This document shows positions 1 to 5,131 of a DNA stretch of 5,131 nucleotides, one piece after another; within the stretch, counting starts at the first letter, position 1; every line of letters starts with the position of its first letter. Both the position numbers and the translations under genes were made by a program. Under the pieces are notes generated by a model. It saw nothing but the letters and a program-made list of their open reading frames with translations, was not told the origin of the DNA and did no database searches. Origin of the DNA: Sedimentisphaerales bacterium (GTDB lineage: Bacteria; Planctomycetota; Phycisphaerae; Sedimentisphaerales; SG8-4); contig JAFGCA010000639.1 of the NCBI GenBank assembly GCA_016932895.1, forward strand, positions 1 through 5,131, in the 5' to 3' direction.

Positions 1-1613
1 GGCCGGCAGAGACGGCCCAGCCGCCTACAGGGCGAACCGACACCGGCAGGGCCGACTACTTCGGCCAGACCCCGACCGGCCAGACGCAGGTCGTCACCGC
101 TTCGGCCGGTGACCTCCAGCCGATCGTCACCGAACCCGGCGTCATGACAAGCTCTCGCGGGCGACCGGTCGTGACCGGCACCGGGCTTGTTTCCGTGGCG
201 GACACCGGCGGAAGCGCCTTCTCGATGATCTATCCTCGGCCGGACTACGGTGTCATCCAGGTGGACAAGGCCATGCCCAGCGAGGTGCGCCTCAACCAGC
301 CGTTCACCTACGGCATCAAGGTGACCAACCTCACCGACATGATGCTGACCGACATCGTCCTGACCGAGACTCTGTCCAAGGAATTCACCTTCAAAGACGC
401 CGAACCCACTGCGGCGGTGGACAACAACAAACTCGTCTGGCAGATCGACTCGCTCGGTCCCAAGGCGAGCAAGAGCTTCAAGGTCTCCGGCATCGCCGTC
501 AACGCCAAGCAATTGGAGCACTGCACGGCTATCACGCACACCGTGCGCGATTGTGCGATCGTCCAGGTGGTCGAGCCGACGCTGCGTCTGGTCAAAACCG
601 TGCCTTCCGAGGCGCTGCTGTGTGAAGCGATCCCGGTCGAGTACACGATCACCAACACGGGGACGGGCATGGCCCGCGAGGTGCAGATCGTGGACACGCT
701 GCCCGCCGGCATGCAGACCGCCGACGGCAAGGACAAGGTCACGCTGGACGTGGGCAGCCTTCTGGCCGGGGAATCCCGCCAGTTTGCCGTCAAGCTCCGC
801 GCCATCAAAGTCGGCACGTTCACCAACAAGGCCATCGCCAGCTCCACCACGGGCTTGAAGGCTGAATCCGATGTAACGGTCCTGAACGTGCGACAGCCCG
901 TTCTGACAATCACGAAATCGGGACCGCAGCGGCAGTATCTGGGCCGGTCGGTCGCGTATGAAATCACCGTGTTCAACAAGGGCAGCGGCCCCGCCCGCGA
1001 GACGGTCGTCGAAGACATCATCCCGCCCGGCGTGACTTCCATCGAGGCCACGGCCGGTGCGCAGTTCTCCGCGTCCAAGCTGGTCTGGGAGCTCGGGACC
1101 CTCGAGCCCAACGGCTCCAAGAAGGTCCGCGTCTCCTACGTCCCGACGAAAGAGGGCGAGGTCGTGGCGACCGCGACCGCCTCGGCGTATTGTGCCGAAA
1201 TGGTGACCGACTCGGCCAAGACGATCGTCACCGGCATTGCGGCCCCGCGGCTCGACGTGGTCGATCTCGAAGACCCGGTCGAGGTAGGCGGCACAACGAC
1301 CTACGTGATCACCGTAACCAACCCCGGCTCGGCGGCGGACCGCAACATCCGCGTCACCTGCCTGCTCGACGAGAGGCTCCAGTACGTCTCGGCGGCCGGT
1401 GCGACGGCCGGATCCGTCATGGGCCGGACCGTCAACTTCGCCCCGCTGGCCTCGCTCGACATCAAGGACAAGGCCACGTGGCGGGTAGTCGTCAGAGGCG
1501 CGCGTCCCGGCGATGCGCTGTTCAAGGCCACCATGTACACGGACAGCCTGGCGCTGCCCGTCGAGGAGACGGAGGCGACCCACATTTACCAGCAGTTCCC
1601 GGGCGTCAAGTAA
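1..1613 (+). CDS. Tandem DUF11-domain surface/exported protein, 3' part (5' truncated by window)
   Basis: The frame is open from base 3 to the TAA at 1611-1613 (536 visible codons). The ATG at 144 is only an internal Met, because the same frame continues upstream without a stop, so the true start lies outside the window. After a low-complexity Thr/Gly/Pro-rich stretch come four repeated modules of about 105-120 residues, at roughly 252-578, 579-893, 894-1247 and 1248-1589. Each has the DUF11 / Ig-like pattern: a Thr-Tyr or Tyr-x-Ile strand, 'VTN' or 'ITNTG' (e.g. 'YTITNTGTG', 'YVITVTNPGS'), then 'DTLPAG' or 'DIIPPG', then 'LGTLEPNGS'-like turns. DUF11 modules are known from bacterial cell-surface and exported proteins, usually structural or adhesive rather than enzymatic. 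The first module ends with two Cys ten residues apart ('EHC...RDC'), possibly a disulfide. The C-terminus 'VEETEATHIYQQ' is soluble, with no sorting motif seen. Export is inferred, since the N-terminus is missing. Confidence 0.9.
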   Translation, partial: PAETAQPPTGRTDTGRADYFGQTPTGQTQVVTASAGDLQPIVTEPGVMTSSRGRPVVTGTGLVSVADTGGSAFSMIYPRPDYGVIQVDKAMPSEVRLNQPFTYGIKVTNLTDMMLTDIVLTETLSKEFTFKDAEPTAAVDNNKLVWQIDSLGPKASKSFKVSGIAVNAKQLEHCTAITHTVRDCAIVQVVEPTLRLVKTVPSEALLCEAIPVEYTITNTGTGMAREVQIVDTLPAGMQTADGKDKVTLDVGSLLAGESRQFAVKLRAIKVGTFTNKAIASSTTGLKAESDVTVLNVRQPVLTITKSGPQRQYLGRSVAYEITVFNKGSGPARETVVEDIIPPGVTSIEATAGAQFSASKLVWELGTLEPNGSKKVRVSYVPTKEGEVVATATASAYCAEMVTDSAKTIVTGIAAPRLDVVDLEDPVEVGGTTTYVITVTNPGSAADRNIRVTCLLDERLQYVSAAGATAGSVMGRTVNFAPLASLDIKDKATWRVVVRGARPGDALFKATMYTDSLALPVEETEATHIYQQFPGVK

Positions 1614-1625
1614 CCGAGTGCTTCA

Positions 1626-1662
1626 CGCCGCGGCGCCCTCACCGGCGCTGCGGCGTTTTTTT
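1626..1662 (+). terminator. Rho-independent terminator of the DUF11 gene
   Basis: A 12-bp GC-rich stem (1626-1637 pairing with 1644-1655, one G-U wobble) with a 6-nt loop is followed directly by seven T residues (1656-1662). It starts 12 nt after the TAA. On the minus strand the hairpin is not followed by a T-run, so it should act mainly on plus-strand transcripts, although it lies just past the end of the convergent minus-strand gene. Confidence 0.93.
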
Positions 1663-1668
1663 ATGCGC

Positions 1669-2997
1669 TCAGCCTCCTTTGAATGACGTGCTGGTCGGAT
1701 ATCCTTCCGGCACGACGAAGAATTTGTAGCCACCGACATCGCTGAAGTAGAGCCCGTCCCTGTTGCCGTCGAACCACTGCCGCCATTGCTGTGACGTTGA
1801 GAATGACACGTCGGTATAGCGTTTCAACAGTCGCCGGGCCGTCGCGGCGTGAGATTCGTCGTCGAGCATCGCGATCAGCCGATCGAGGGTCTCCGACGTA
1901 CGATTCGTTTCCAGGCCGAGAGACTTCAACTCCTCATCGATCCGGAACACGCCGTCGCGATACACCCATTCGAGATTTTCCCGATAAAGCCGAGTCAGGC
2001 CATCAGGGTCGGAATTGTATTGGGCATACAGAGCTTCCGGGAACTGCCCGAGGAAGAACTCCTTTTGATCGCCGCTGATTCGGTTGATGAGCGGGGCCAG
2101 CCGAACGGCGTCCATGCGAGGACTGCTCTTCCTGTAGACGAGCGGCCTTATGCCGTCAAACTTGTGAATGTAATAGACACAGTTGAGGAAAAGTCTTCGG
2201 CCGGGCTCGGTCATCTGCGACGGGGGCGACGCGTAGCCCCATTGCAGAAAACTGCCCTGGCGGCCAACTCCAATCGCCCCATACTCCTTGCCCTCGTTGA
2301 AACCGATGACCAGCGCCTCGGCATCAGGCGAATCCATGAAGCCGTAAGAACGGGCGACAACGCCGCCATAGGTCTTGCCGCTGTTCTGAACGCGCCAGAC
2401 TTTCATCTTGTCCGGGAGCTTGTCGCCGTCGGGGTATCGGCGATAGTTGTCCGGCGTGTTCCACGTCTCGAATTCCGGCCGCACCTCGAACGGCGTGTGA
2501 TACACCTCGTGGTCAAGCGACCCAACATGGGCCGCGTCTCCCATGCAGTTTCACAAGTAGCCTGTCTTCAGTCCCCACTGGGAGCACATCAGGCCGCCGG
2601 CAACACCGACGGTCACGAGCGGACGAGAGAATTGACGCGAGATATTTATGTGAGGGGCTTTGAAGCCGTCGCCGTCATAATCGAGGATGGTCACATCGAA
2701 ACCGTCGCTCTGCGACTCGACGAACGTCGCCAGGTCGGCCGTCTCGACCGTGCCGAAATGCTGCCGCAGAAATCGAACGAAATCGCCTTCCCGCTCGGAG
2801 CCGGGGTGGCCGGCGTAGAGAATGCGGAGATCGCTCCCCGCATCCGCCTGAGCGTTCGGCTCCGTCATCTCGGTCGGCGCCGGGGGCGGCGACTCCGGCT
2901 CGTTCTGCTTTCTGCAACCCGACACCGCTGTCAGCCCCAGCAACGCCGTGAGTACTGCCAGGACACCGATTCTTCGCATCGCAATTCGAGCGATCAT
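1669..2997 (-). CDS. Candidate selenoprotein: ThuA/GATase1-like lipoprotein with in-frame TGA (Sec149)
   Basis: One minus-strand frame runs from ATG 2997 to TGA 1671-1669 (442 residues), broken only by TGA at 2553-2551. The ATG at 2997 is chosen because GGTGGAG (3012-3006) lies 8 nt upstream and a signal peptide follows at once. A further in-frame ATG at 3084 would add 29 residues ahead of the signal peptide. Seen: basic start, hydrophobic core and lipobox V-S-G-C28; a Pro/Glu-rich linker (about 31-55); an alpha/beta domain with a first strand 'LRILYAGHPG' (about 57-66), 'DVTILDYDGD' (about 101-110) and an elbow-like 'VTVGVAGGLMC' (128-138); then U149-N150-C151, 'DHEVY' (about 162-166) and 'GRRLFLNCVYYIHKFDG' (about 266-282). 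The alternation and last helix resemble ThuA-like/GATase1-like domains. A helical C-terminal region ends in 'YFSDVGGYKFF'. The fold assignment is by motif resemblance and the biochemical function is unknown. It is probably lipid-anchored and exposed to the periplasm. It is divergent from the 7-TM gene at 3147. Alternatives: a pseudogene by nonsense mutation, or a base-call error. Confidence 0.75.
2517..2535 (-). promoter_or_regulatory. Candidate bacterial SECIS hairpin downstream of the TGA
   Basis: In the minus-strand mRNA, GCGGCCCA (2535-2528) pairs with UGGGUCGC (2524-2517): eight consecutive pairs including one G-U, closing a UGU loop (2527-2525), or AUGUU if the last A-U pair is open. 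The apical loop begins 24 nt after the TGA and has G as its second base. Known bacterial SECIS elements lie inside the coding region just after the UGA and carry a G early in a small apical loop, so position and shape fit. The wobble pair becomes an A-C mismatch in plus-strand RNA, so the fold suits the coding transcript. No clear bulged U as in E. coli fdhF is visible. A competing 6-bp hairpin exists at 2526-2545. Confidence 0.55.
2526..2545 (-). repeat. Inverted repeat CATGGG-N8-CCCATG, alternative hairpin after the TGA
   Basis: Perfect 6-bp arms (2545-2540 and 2531-2526 in mRNA sense) enclose an 8-nt loop starting AG. The loop opens 12 nt after the TGA, rather close for a typical SECIS. 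The 3' arm shares bases with the 2517-2535 hairpin, so the two folds exclude each other. The internal ATG at 2544-2542 is buried in this stem, which further argues against reinitiation there. Confidence 0.4.
2551..2553 (-). other. In-frame TGA read as selenocysteine (candidate recoding site)
   Basis: The codon series here is TAC TTG TGA AAC TGC ATG, giving Y-L-(U)-N-C-M. The frame upstream (2997 to 2554) and downstream (2550 to 1672) is the same frame and both parts look protein-coding. The next ATG (2544-2542) has no Shine-Dalgarno sequence within 5-12 nt, so independent translation of the second half is unlikely. Insertion would give Sec149 one residue before Cys151. TGA differs from the Cys codons TGC/TGT only at the third base, as in Sec/Cys homologue pairs. 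Sec is inferred; homologues were not checked. Confidence 0.7.
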
Positions 2998-3005
2998 AGC
3001 GTTGA

Positions 3006-3012
3006 CTCCACC
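3006..3012 (-). promoter_or_regulatory. Ribosome binding site of the selenoprotein candidate
   Basis: GGTGGAG in mRNA sense, 8 nt before the ATG at 2997. It decides the start in favour of 2997 over the in-frame ATG at 3084, which would put 29 extra residues in front of the signal peptide. Confidence 0.75.
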
Positions 3013-3139: not shown

Positions 3140-3146
3140 TATGACA

Positions 3147-4541
3147 ATGTGGAGGAAATCGTTGCGGACGTTGAGAGGAATCGCGGGTCGCGGGCGGGCG
3201 GGCAGTCTGATCGTCCTTGTCGCGGTGGTTTCGGCCGGCCTGGGGCAGGATCAACCGCAACAGATGCTGGGTGAATTGAGAATCGAGGGAACACACGTCG
3301 CCCGGCTCGTTCTGCGCGGGGCCAACAACCACACCGAAGACTACACCGACCCCAACGGCAGCATCAAGCTGCCGGTCGGCATATATCGCGTGGAGCTACT
3401 GGAGCTGCGCGGCAATTGCATCTGCCGGCACTTGTCGGGGCTTAGCCAGGTCACGGTAACCAGTGACGAGCCGGCCGTGCTCAAGGTGGGCGGACCTCTG
3501 CAGCAGACAATCCAGGTCAGCCGGCAGGGTCGCACGTTGATTCTACACTACCGCCTGCTCGGGATCGGCGGCGAGGAATACACGATATCAAGGTTGTCGG
3601 AAAGGCGGCCGAGATTCACCGTGTACAAAGGTGAGAAGGCCGTAGCCACCGGCAACTTCGAATACGGTTTAGCCGGCACCTGCTCGTACTCGTGGCAGGT
3701 ACCTCCAACGACATTCGGACAGCTCCGCATCGTCCCCTCGGCCGAAATCGGCGACATGGGCGCCCACGAAGGGCAGGCGTCTTTATACGAGTGGCGGTGG
3801 TCTTACTCGGCGCCGGCGATGCTCGTGTGGCTGGTCCTGATCGCGGCGATGGTGGGAGTCAAGACCAATCGCGACCACCGGGTGCTGTGGATTCTCATCC
3901 CGTTGGCGGCCTTGAACGTACTCCATCTGCTGTTCAAGAAGGTCACGAGCATGCCTTCATCGTCCGCCATGCAATTCGACCTGCTGTTTCAATCGCTGGC
4001 CATCGGCGTGACGCTCCTGTGGCTGGTCGCCCCCGTGCTCGGGCACTATCCGACCCCTACTCGCGTCGCGCTGGCATTTCTCGCGCTCCTGGCCGTCGCC
4101 GGTATGGGTATATTCTCTTATGGCGACCCGGACTGGCAAGCGGTAATGATCCTCCTGATCGTGCTCAGCTTTCTGGCTCTGGTGTTGATTACCGCCTTGC
4201 TCGCCGCCGCCTGCTCATGTCGAAGTGTCTATCGTCCGGTCTGCCTCATGGCGTGGCTGGCGGTATGGACAAGCATCAGTGGCATCACGGGCACCCTGGG
4301 CATGCTTCTCGTCATCATGGCCGTCCTGCGTCCAAGCGCATCACAGCCTGCCGAGGCAATCCTGACGGGCGGGTTGACTGGCTTGGTTTTGGGACTGTGT
4401 CTGTACGTCCTGTCCGTACCCTACATGCTCCTGGGATTTGCCAGCCCCTTTTTCCGCATCCGCCTCCAGACGTGCCTGGACCTGGGTGCCCCCGAGGACA
4501 CGACGCCCAACCCGGCACCACAGCCGGAAACCGGCGGCTGA
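3147..4541 (+). CDS. Unknown exported multi-pass membrane protein (periplasmic domain plus ~7 TM)
   Basis: I do not recognise the family. The start at 3147 is preferred: AGGAG (3135-3139) is 7 nt upstream of this ATG but only 1 nt from the in-frame ATG at 3141. The product is 464 residues. Visible parts: a basic N-terminus and hydrophobic stretch (about 19-33) ending near 'SAGLG', a probable signal peptide or anchor; a beta-rich region (about 40-215) with 'GELRIEG', 'LPVGIYRVELLEL' and a C-I-C pair at about 91-93, reminiscent of carboxypeptidase-regulatory-like or PEGA-type beta folds, only by look; then hydrophobic segments at about 223-240, 246-263, 280-299, 306-325, 332-356, 365-394 and 404-432; and a short Pro/Thr-rich tail. 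This implies a periplasmic domain fused to a 7-helix membrane bundle, an arrangement also seen in 7TM sensor proteins, though no output domain follows. It is divergent from the selenoprotein candidate, and co-function is only a guess. It ends in TGA, used here as a normal stop. Confidence 0.85.
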   Translation: MWRKSLRTLRGIAGRGRAGSLIVLVAVVSAGLGQDQPQQMLGELRIEGTHVARLVLRGANNHTEDYTDPNGSIKLPVGIYRVELLELRGNCICRHLSGLSQVTVTSDEPAVLKVGGPLQQTIQVSRQGRTLILHYRLLGIGGEEYTISRLSERRPRFTVYKGEKAVATGNFEYGLAGTCSYSWQVPPTTFGQLRIVPSAEIGDMGAHEGQASLYEWRWSYSAPAMLVWLVLIAAMVGVKTNRDHRVLWILIPLAALNVLHLLFKKVTSMPSSSAMQFDLLFQSLAIGVTLLWLVAPVLGHYPTPTRVALAFLALLAVAGMGIFSYGDPDWQAVMILLIVLSFLALVLITALLAAACSCRSVYRPVCLMAWLAVWTSISGITGTLGMLLVIMAVLRPSASQPAEAILTGGLTGLVLGLCLYVLSVPYMLLGFASPFFRIRLQTCLDLGAPEDTTPNPAPQPETGG

Positions 4542-4650: not shown

Positions 4651-4725
4651 GGCGGTCGTTTGAATAGTCGCCTTACCCGAGGGGGATGCTCTGCGGAAAC
4701 GTGACGTATGGCCCCGGGGGATTCC

Positions 4726-4732
4726 GAAAGGA
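4726..4732 (+). promoter_or_regulatory. Ribosome binding site of accB
   Basis: GAAAGGA, 7 nt before the ATG at 4740. It selects this start over the in-frame ATG at 4686, whose G-run abuts the codon with no spacing. Confidence 0.7.
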
Positions 4733-4739
4733 TGCGGCA

Positions 4740-5131
4740 ATGCCTGAGAAAGACGCCGACGTGCAGAAGATCAAAGAGCTCATCAAGATCATGAAAGAGA
4801 ATGATCTTGTGAAGATCGATATTCAGCACGGCGATGATCGCGTTTCGCTCCAGCGGGCCGAGCCGCAACCACCGGCAACGGGGCATTTCATCACGGCGAT
4901 GCCCGGTCCCATAGTGTCCGGGGTCGCGCCCGAGGGCCAGGCGGTTTCGGCCGGGGCAAAACCCGGGCCGTCGCCCGCCGAGGGGACAGTCGAGATCAAA
5001 TCCCCCATCGTCGGCACGTTCTACGAGGCCCCGAGCCCCGATTCCGACCCGTACGTCGAGGTCGGCGGCCACGTGGACCCGCAGACGGTCGTGTGCATCA
5101 TCGAGGCGATGAAGGTCATGAACGAGATCAA
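4740..5131 (+). CDS. accB: Biotin carboxyl carrier protein of acetyl-CoA carboxylase (3' truncated by window)
   Basis: The first 130 codons are visible with no stop before the window edge. AccB carries biotin between the biotin carboxylase (AccC) and carboxyltransferase subunits, in the cytoplasm, to make malonyl-CoA for fatty-acid synthesis. The N-terminal helix region '[21 protein letters not shown]' type sequence (8-28) is typical of BCCP, followed by a Pro/Ala/Gly-rich linker (about 41-82) and the biotinyl domain from about 84. The biotinyl domain includes '[18 protein letters not shown]' (88-105), the 'thumb' segment characteristic of acetyl-CoA carboxylase BCCPs, and 'EAMKVMNEI' (122-130) with the biotin-accepting Lys125. 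Typical AccB proteins are about 150-165 residues, so only some 25-35 are missing. In many bacteria accC follows directly; that cannot be seen here. It is preceded by its own promoter and ribosome binding site. Confidence 0.97.

What the first reader, a model, noticed from the sequence alone, without database searches (positions are those of the whole stretch)
2551..2553. In-frame TGA likely encodes selenocysteine in an undescribed lipoprotein
Two apparently separate minus-strand ORFs (ending at 2551 and starting at 2544) are in the same frame with only TGA-AAC-TGC between them. Joined, they form one 442-residue protein with a signal peptide/lipobox and a continuous ThuA-like domain spanning the junction. 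The second ORF lacks a ribosome binding site and a domain start. The TGA lies two codons from a Cys codon, producing a U-x-C motif, typical of redox-active Sec/Cys pairs. TGA also ends two genes here, so only context-dependent recoding would explain it. Automatic annotation would call a truncated lipoprotein plus a fragment, or a pseudogene.
Basis: partly seen in the sequence, partly recalled or inferred. Interest (0 to 1): 0.88.

Follow-up and report, generated by a model that had tools for sequence, protein, structure and literature searches.

The report
New selenocysteine lipoprotein family in planctomycetes
A gene that looks cut in two by a stop codon is very probably one protein that uses the rare amino acid selenocysteine; its family is spread through planctomycete bacteria, matches no catalogued family that was searched, and in some genomes sits beside the genes that insert selenocysteine.

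Summary
The observation and main interpretation hold. Minus-strand 2997-1669 is one 442-residue frame interrupted by TGA at 2553-2551, with Cys two codons later (U-x-C). TGA stands at the same codon in about 40 genomes; three full-length relatives and one database protein have Cys there, one remote relative has neither. Of 120 listed database homologues (475 found), 117 begin exactly at residue 152, as gene callers that stop at TGA would leave them. A hairpin begins 15 nt after the TGA (8 bp, 3-nt loop): over 30 sites 97.5% of cells pair, 17 cells changed on both sides, 0 of 500 shuffles equal (two weaker measures reach 48 and 84 of 500). In 161 genomes of one order, 26 of 29 with the family have tRNA-Sec or SelB, against 24 of 132 others; selB lies 0.6-2.0 kb away in 8 of 29. 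The window's own genome is not held, so its Sec genes are untested. Residues 55-282 have a GATase1/ThuA-like fold. No Pfam or NCBIfam model matches. Function is inferred: an envelope-anchored thiol/selenol redox protein. The + strand neighbour belongs to a second unannotated, multi-copy Sec family; its copy here has Leu instead.

The parts
1669..2997 (-). joined selenoprotein gene, 442 codons plus terminal TGA; lipoprotein with GATase1/ThuA-like domain and C-terminal helical domain
   Evidence: translation; L001-L007 align from residue 1-49 to 433-436 at 54-62% identity
2551..2553 (-). in-frame TGA read as selenocysteine (residue 149)
   Evidence: TGA at the same codon in relatives; Cys in L008, L023, L074, P0091
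2545..2547 (-). TGC codon of Cys151, the partner in U-x-C
   Evidence: TGC in 28 and TGT in 1 of 29 sites (my site filter required this Cys); Cys in 10 of 10 rows of A1
2517..2535 (-). SECIS-like hairpin: 8 bp, loop UGU, loop begins 23 nt after the TGA
3006..3012 (-). ribosome-binding-like GGTGGAG before the ATG at 2997
   Evidence: sequence, read by eye
2914..2997 (-). signal peptide and lipobox ending in Cys28
   Evidence: read by eye; Cys28 aligned in L001, L002, L003, P0091 of the 10 rows of A1, several of which were cut short
2152..2835 (-). GATase1/ThuA-like fold, residues 55-282
   Evidence: AlphaFold2 model, mean pLDDT 81.9; Foldseek and VIA-align
1672..2148 (-). C-terminal helical domain, residues 284-442, no relative found
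3141..4541 (+). divergent neighbour: membrane protein of a second unannotated Sec family (F-x-Y-G-U-G-G-x-C and close variants), here with Leu in place of Sec
3669..3671 (+). TTA (Leu) where relatives of the neighbour have TGA
   Evidence: 12 of 12 other sites have TGA; 25 of 25 distinct sites, some the same as
3686..3702 (+). remnant of the neighbour's SECIS-like hairpin, one of seven pairs broken

Best explanation
The gene encodes one exported lipoprotein in which UGA149 is decoded as selenocysteine: SelB with Sec-tRNA binds the hairpin just downstream and inserts Sec instead of termination (supported by comparison, not by experiment; the SelB step is established knowledge of bacterial Sec insertion). 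The protein is then exported and lipid-anchored at Cys28 (inferred from the lipobox). Sec149 and Cys151 form a U-x-C pair on a GATase1/ThuA-like domain whose usual catalytic-Cys position appears to be Ala133 (inferred from the motif), so it is unlikely to be a glutaminase; the pair most likely cycles between selenol/thiol and selenenylsulfide as a thiol oxidoreductase in the cell envelope (inferred, about 0.5). The confidence below is for Sec insertion at this codon in this family; the function is much less certain.
For: TGA at the same codon: L001-L007; 29 of 161 genomes have the family, and of 36 match rows 28 cover the codon and all 28 hold a TGA (24 with no other stop), while 8 start past it (contexts); over a phylum sample 16 of 392 genomes match and 17 of 19 rows hold one TGA, the other two being a Cys form (L074) and a row past the codon. 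Database proteins: of 120 listed, the window's own piece included, 117 start at residue 152, one at 151, one at 171, and one is a full-length Cys form. dN 0.24-0.33 with dS above 1.1 on both sides of the codon in 5 pairs. Hairpin over 30 sites: 97.5% of 240 cells paired, 17 cells changed on both sides, covariation 0.346, each 0/500 shuffles; slid versions pair at most 51%; RNAalifold picks the same 8 pairs. A silent third position of an Ala codon (GCC/GCT) goes with Gly/Glu exchange (GGG/GAG) in 29 of 29 sites with Ala, and the 30th also pairs. Remote members: uninterrupted helix of 6 or more bp in 10 of 13, loop 23-24 nt after TGA, mean 6.9 bp against 4.6 in shuffles. Machinery: 26 of 29 family genomes have tRNA-Sec or SelB over cut-off against 24 of 132 others, Fisher p 3.6e-13; 14 of 14 Sec-form genomes among the 18 have tRNA-Sec; selB 0.6-2.0 kb away in 8 of 29.
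Against: No genome is held for the window, so its own sel genes are untested. G001, which holds the best-scoring fetched relative (L001), shows no selA, selD or tRNA-Sec over cut-off and no SelB over cut-off; it is a MAG in more than 400 contigs. G322 shows none either, but its gene is interrupted by N. A Cys form (L074) lies in a genome that has tRNA-Sec. One remote member (L089) has neither Sec nor Cys there. The Fisher p ignores kinship of the genomes. The hairpin sites were picked for having TGA, so their TGA is not itself a count; two of the five hairpin measures are weak against shuffles (pairs changed on both sides 48/500, further pair types 84/500). The window's hairpin alone is moderate (z -1.68, 11 of 200 shuffles as good). 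Under synonymous-codon shuffling 20 of 42 sites reach 0.05, and L075, L076, L080, L081 score above their means. In 3 of 13 remote members no such uninterrupted helix was found. No Rfam SECIS model matched.
Confidence: 0.94

Rival explanations
1. Two separate genes: an N-terminal lipoprotein ending at 2551 and a second protein starting at 2544, perhaps translationally coupled.
For: Automatic annotation sees it so: 119 of 120 listed homologues are C-terminal pieces. A start codon does follow the TGA in the window.
Against: The start position is TTA or CTC in 5 of 29 sites; no ribosome-binding site seen; the modelled fold spans the junction; full-length Cys forms exist.
Confidence: 0.02
2. Pseudogene or sequencing error: the TGA is a nonsense mutation or miscall.
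For: Single contig, no reads available here.
Against: The same TGA in about 40 genomes (my count) with purifying selection downstream.
Confidence: 0.01
3. TGA is read as another amino acid, by genome-wide reassignment or plain readthrough.
For: None found beyond the open frame.
Against: TGA ends this gene and its neighbour; the selB matches over cut-off and the selA matches listed carry no in-frame stops, and of the selD matches only one second copy (G243) has a single TGA; tie to tRNA-Sec and hairpin; aligned residue is Cys in four members without TGA.
Confidence: 0.02
4. Same Sec insertion, other role: the U-x-C pair binds a metal or metalloid, or serves as a redox sensor, rather than being a catalytic thiol oxidoreductase.
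For: C-x-C type pairs bind metals in other proteins (recalled). The redox role is not shown by any search.
Against: The 2026 review holds it likely that most uncharacterised selenoproteins serve redox functions (PMC13188914, passages). Among Cys and His positions of A1 only U149, C151 and H163 are the same in 10 of 10 rows; H80 is in 9, H157 and C273 in 8, which neither proves nor excludes a metal site.
Confidence: 0.35

Closest known systems
ThuA-like / class I GATase-fold proteins (4jqs Bacteroides ThuA-like, 3rht planctomycete GATase1-like, GMP synthase GATase domains)
   Different: 8-16% identity in the listed rows; no Pfam hit; Ala where GATases have the catalytic Cys (placed by motif, inferred); Sec/Cys pair elsewhere; extra C-terminal domain; lipoprotein
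CTP synthase C-terminal region-related selenoprotein (NF004836, GxUxG)
   Same: a predicted bacterial selenoprotein listed as a glutamine amidotransferase in the 2026 review
   Different: motif GxUxG rather than U-x-C; its NCBIfam model was not among the hits of any of 10 members
Selenoproteins with UxC motifs (thioredoxin-like Sec.2, SO_0444 family transporter)
   Same: U-x-C pair
   Different: named thioredoxin-like and transporter families; no Pfam or NCBIfam hit links them to this family
Bacterial SECIS element
   Same: stem-loop immediately 3' of the UGA, as described in PMC9312934 (passages)
   Different: no difference in kind seen; apical loop 3 nt, mostly UGN, in close relatives, CGGGN in 7 of the 10 remote helices

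Membership tests
bacterial selenoprotein genes | in-frame TGA with conserved coding sequence on both sides | tested here: met
bacterial selenoprotein genes | Cys at the same position in some homologues | tested here: met
   L008, L023, L074, P0091; one remote member has neither
bacterial selenoprotein genes | SECIS stem-loop immediately downstream of the UGA | tested here: met
   per-sequence signal mixed; no Rfam match
bacterial selenoprotein genes | selA, selB, selC, selD in the same genome | tested here: inconclusive
   window's genome not held; at least one found in 30 of 34 relatives' genomes tabulated (selB not searched in five of the 34); none in G001, G322 and the two Cys-form genomes G008, G153
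bacterial selenoprotein genes | selenium incorporated into the protein | not testable with these tools
   needs expression and mass spectrometry
ThuA family / class I GATase | GATase1-like fold | tested here: met
ThuA family / class I GATase | match to the family's Pfam profile | tested here: not met
   only a chance hit to another family at E 0.23; 10 members scanned, no ThuA or GATase family among the hits
ThuA family / class I GATase | catalytic Cys at the nucleophile elbow (GATase) | tested here: inconclusive
   elbow placed by eye at G131-V-A-G-G from the sequence; Ala there, no structural superposition done
the 119 listed prokaryotic selenoprotein families (PMC13188914 Table 1) | match to their NCBIfam models or name | tested here: not met
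   no NCBIfam hit better than E 0.05 for 10 members; no fitting name in the rows seen (a short gap in the table was not seen); families listed with Pfam ids tested, those with CDD, PANTHER or no ids by name only

The most novel reading that the evidence does not exclude
Many planctomycetes of this order carry a selenoprotein island around selA-selB: this U-x-C lipoprotein family plus a second, unrelated family (F-x-Y-G-U-G-G-x-C, membrane and other forms) with up to eight matches per genome, neither found in the family libraries searched. Together they would form an undescribed envelope selenium-dependent redox system, and this system, not the classical Sec enzymes, may be what keeps the Sec trait in these lineages.
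Probability: 0.5. Interest if true: 0.82.

Novelty: new member of a known kind. Interest (0 to 1): 0.68.

Why it matters
It adds a selenoprotein family spread over a phylum, on a GATase1/ThuA-like fold, that the protein database searched holds almost only as truncated pieces (119 of the 120 listed of 475 matches). Sec is the usual state here and Cys the exception, which makes it a good case for asking what Sec does that Cys cannot. Its place beside selB and selA in some genomes, and the second multi-copy Sec family next door, suggest that planctomycete selenium use is larger than catalogued and point to a testable envelope system.

Tried and rejected
Two genes, pseudogene and code reassignment were considered and rejected (see rivals). 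Pfam, NCBIfam and PDB sequence searches gave nothing usable for the family. Rfam found no SECIS in the window; its three hits lie below their gathering scores and are taken as chance. Pfam hits of ten neighbouring frames gave no functional lead. Paper searches listed no paper that I recognised as describing this family, in a library of open-licence papers only. Seen were passages of PMC13188914 with section 7 part 1, passages of PMC12013277, PMC4807772 and PMC9312934; all other papers as search listings only.

Dropped or missing: one chance match (L007 near 985) was left out before the hairpin count. L006 was missed by my motif filter and so is absent and from the codon census; it was added, which lowered cells paired from 98.3 to 97.5%. 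SelB was searched only in the 161 genomes, so not in G005, G007, G008, G063, G153, G740, G838. TGA place was not read for rows without a locus (G006:C254, G334:C50, G362:C212, and second rows of G595, G504, G549). One search aligned wrong coordinates and was not used. The third protein search, the last genome search and one structure search were not used.

Full report
Observation. On the minus strand two ORFs, 3084-2551 and 2544-1669, share one frame and are separated by TGA-AAC-TGC. From the ATG at 2997, which follows a GGTGGAG, the joined frame has 442 codons with TGA at codon 149. No ribosome-binding site is seen before the second ORF. TGA also ends this gene and the neighbour at 3141-4541.

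Conservation of the codon. A scan of genome contigs gave eight relatives: L001-L007 have TGA at the same codon at 54-62% identity, L008 (Porticoccus) has Cys at 28%. In the order of G003, 29 of 161 genomes have the family. Of 36 match rows, 28 cover the codon (model position 120 of 402) and all 28 hold a TGA, 24 of them with no other stop; the other 8 rows start past it, one of them with a TGA and a TAA of its own. Contexts are; three of the 28 rows had no locus and were not read. In a class sample 8 of 298 genomes match. In a phylum sample 16 of 392 match, with 17 of 19 rows holding one TGA, one a Cys form (L074) and one past the codon. In the phylum of G005, 2 of 240 match: L088 with TGA, L089 with neither Sec nor Cys. 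Cys forms are L008, L023, L074 and the database protein P0091, all C-x-C. Of the 120 listed of 475 database matches, the window's own piece included, 117 begin exactly at residue 152, one at 151, one at 171, and one is full length with Cys.

One gene, not two. The presumed second start is ATG in 17, CTG in 5, TTG in 2, TTA in 3 and CTC in 2 of 29 sites. Non-synonymous change is low on both sides of the codon (dN 0.26-0.33 upstream, 0.24-0.32 downstream, dS above 1.1 or saturated; 5 pairs).

The hairpin. Columns 19-26 pair with 30-37 counted from the TGA (window 2535-2517), with a 3-nt loop. The 30 sites were picked for their TGA. Over them 97.5% of 240 cells pair, 17 cells are changed on both sides and the covariation score is 0.346, each reached by 0 of 500 shuffles; the number of pairs changed on both sides (3) is reached by 48 and the further pair types (9) by 84 of 500; slid versions pair 31-51%. 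RNAalifold predicts the same eight pairs. Telling is the pair 24-32: a silent difference in an Ala codon (GCC/GCT) goes with Gly/Glu exchange (GGG/GAG) in 29 of 29 sites with Ala; the 30th (L024, Val) pairs too. Remote members keep an uninterrupted helix of 6 or more bp in 10 of 13, loop 23-24 nt from the TGA, with stems of different sequence; mean 6.9 bp against 4.6 in shuffles, of which 8% reach 7. Against: the window hairpin alone is modest (z -1.68). Under synonymous-codon shuffling the mean z of 42 Sec sites is -1.48 against -0.31 to +0.15 at seven control offsets, but only 20 of 42 reach 0.05 and four score above their mean; three Cys forms score 0.10 to 0.94.

Machinery. In the 161 genomes, 41 have tRNA-Sec over cut-off and 44 SelB. 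Family genomes have either in 26 of 29, others in 24 of 132 (Fisher p 3.6e-13, not corrected for kinship). Of 34 genomes tested, 25 have SelA and 23 SelD over cut-off. In one search, 16 of 18 genomes have tRNA-Sec: all 14 Sec-form genomes, one where the codon was not covered (G410), and G740 (Cys form); G153 (Cys form) and G838 (neither) lack it. In the table four of 34 genomes show no Sec gene: the Cys-form genomes G008 and G153, and against my reading G001 (a MAG in over 400 contigs) and G322 (gene interrupted by N). In 8 of 29 genomes selB lies 0.6-2.0 kb from the gene, convergent with it; in one of these, G355, the selB match is cut by a contig end and below cut-off. selA is on the same contig in 6 of the 8. 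The window's own genome is not held.

Novelty. No Pfam or NCBIfam model fits 10 members. The rows seen of the 2026 list of 119 prokaryotic selenoprotein families hold no matching entry. Paper searches found no description, in an open-licence library only; Sec use in planctomycetes as such is known (PMC4807772, passages). I call it a new family of a known kind.

The neighbour. The divergent + strand gene 3141-4541 has relatives near this gene in L054, L056, L063 and L065, and related frames lie in L068 and L069, with an in-frame TGA in F-x-Y-G-U-G-G-x-C or a close variant: 12 of 12 sites besides the window, 25 of 25 distinct sites (partly the same sites). Their own hairpin pairs in 98.9% of 91 cells with three double changes, 0 of 500 shuffles on all five measures. 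The window's copy has TTA (Leu) there and one broken pair: Sec seems lost in this copy. In the order, 54 of 161 genomes have matches to this family, up to 8 each, most listed rows with one TGA; 47 of the 54 are among the 50 genomes with tRNA-Sec or SelB (Fisher p 2.5e-29, not corrected for kinship). No Pfam or NCBIfam match.

Noticed in passing
window 3141-4541 (+); L054, L056, L063, L065, L068, L069, L090-L109: A second unannotated Sec family (F-x-Y-G-U-G-G-x-C) with a covarying hairpin, several matches per genome, in 47 of 50 genomes of the order that have tRNA-Sec or SelB; the window's copy has Leu (TTA) in place of Sec.
   Followed up: partly
L063 4320-7226 and 13310-15460; L065 4857-6296; L054 6065-7894: Subfamilies of the second family: neighbouring copies near selA in L063, and a form with motif YG-U-GGTCSLSWREP whose hairpin differs by compensatory changes (GCTCTCG/CGAGAGC against GTACTCG/CGAGTAC).
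   Followed up: partly
L022, L039, L041, L042, L044: A shorter paralogue that matches only the N-terminal domain (model positions about 12-255 of 402) and also carries the TGA.
   Followed up: no
L054 (G002), L063, L065, L068, L069: selB, and in most of these selA, lie directly beyond the gene, convergent with it.
   Followed up: yes
window 1614-1668: G+C-rich inverted repeat between the convergent genes, read by eye as a likely bidirectional terminator.
   Followed up: no
window 3-1613 (+) and 4686-5129 (+): Repeated DUF11 domains (E 1.9e-42), and the start of a biotin/lipoyl-domain protein (E 5.3e-10).
   Followed up: no
G005 (L005): A genome of about 14 Mb labelled Lentisphaerae holds a Sec-form member 54% identical to the window's; the bin may be mixed.
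   Followed up: no
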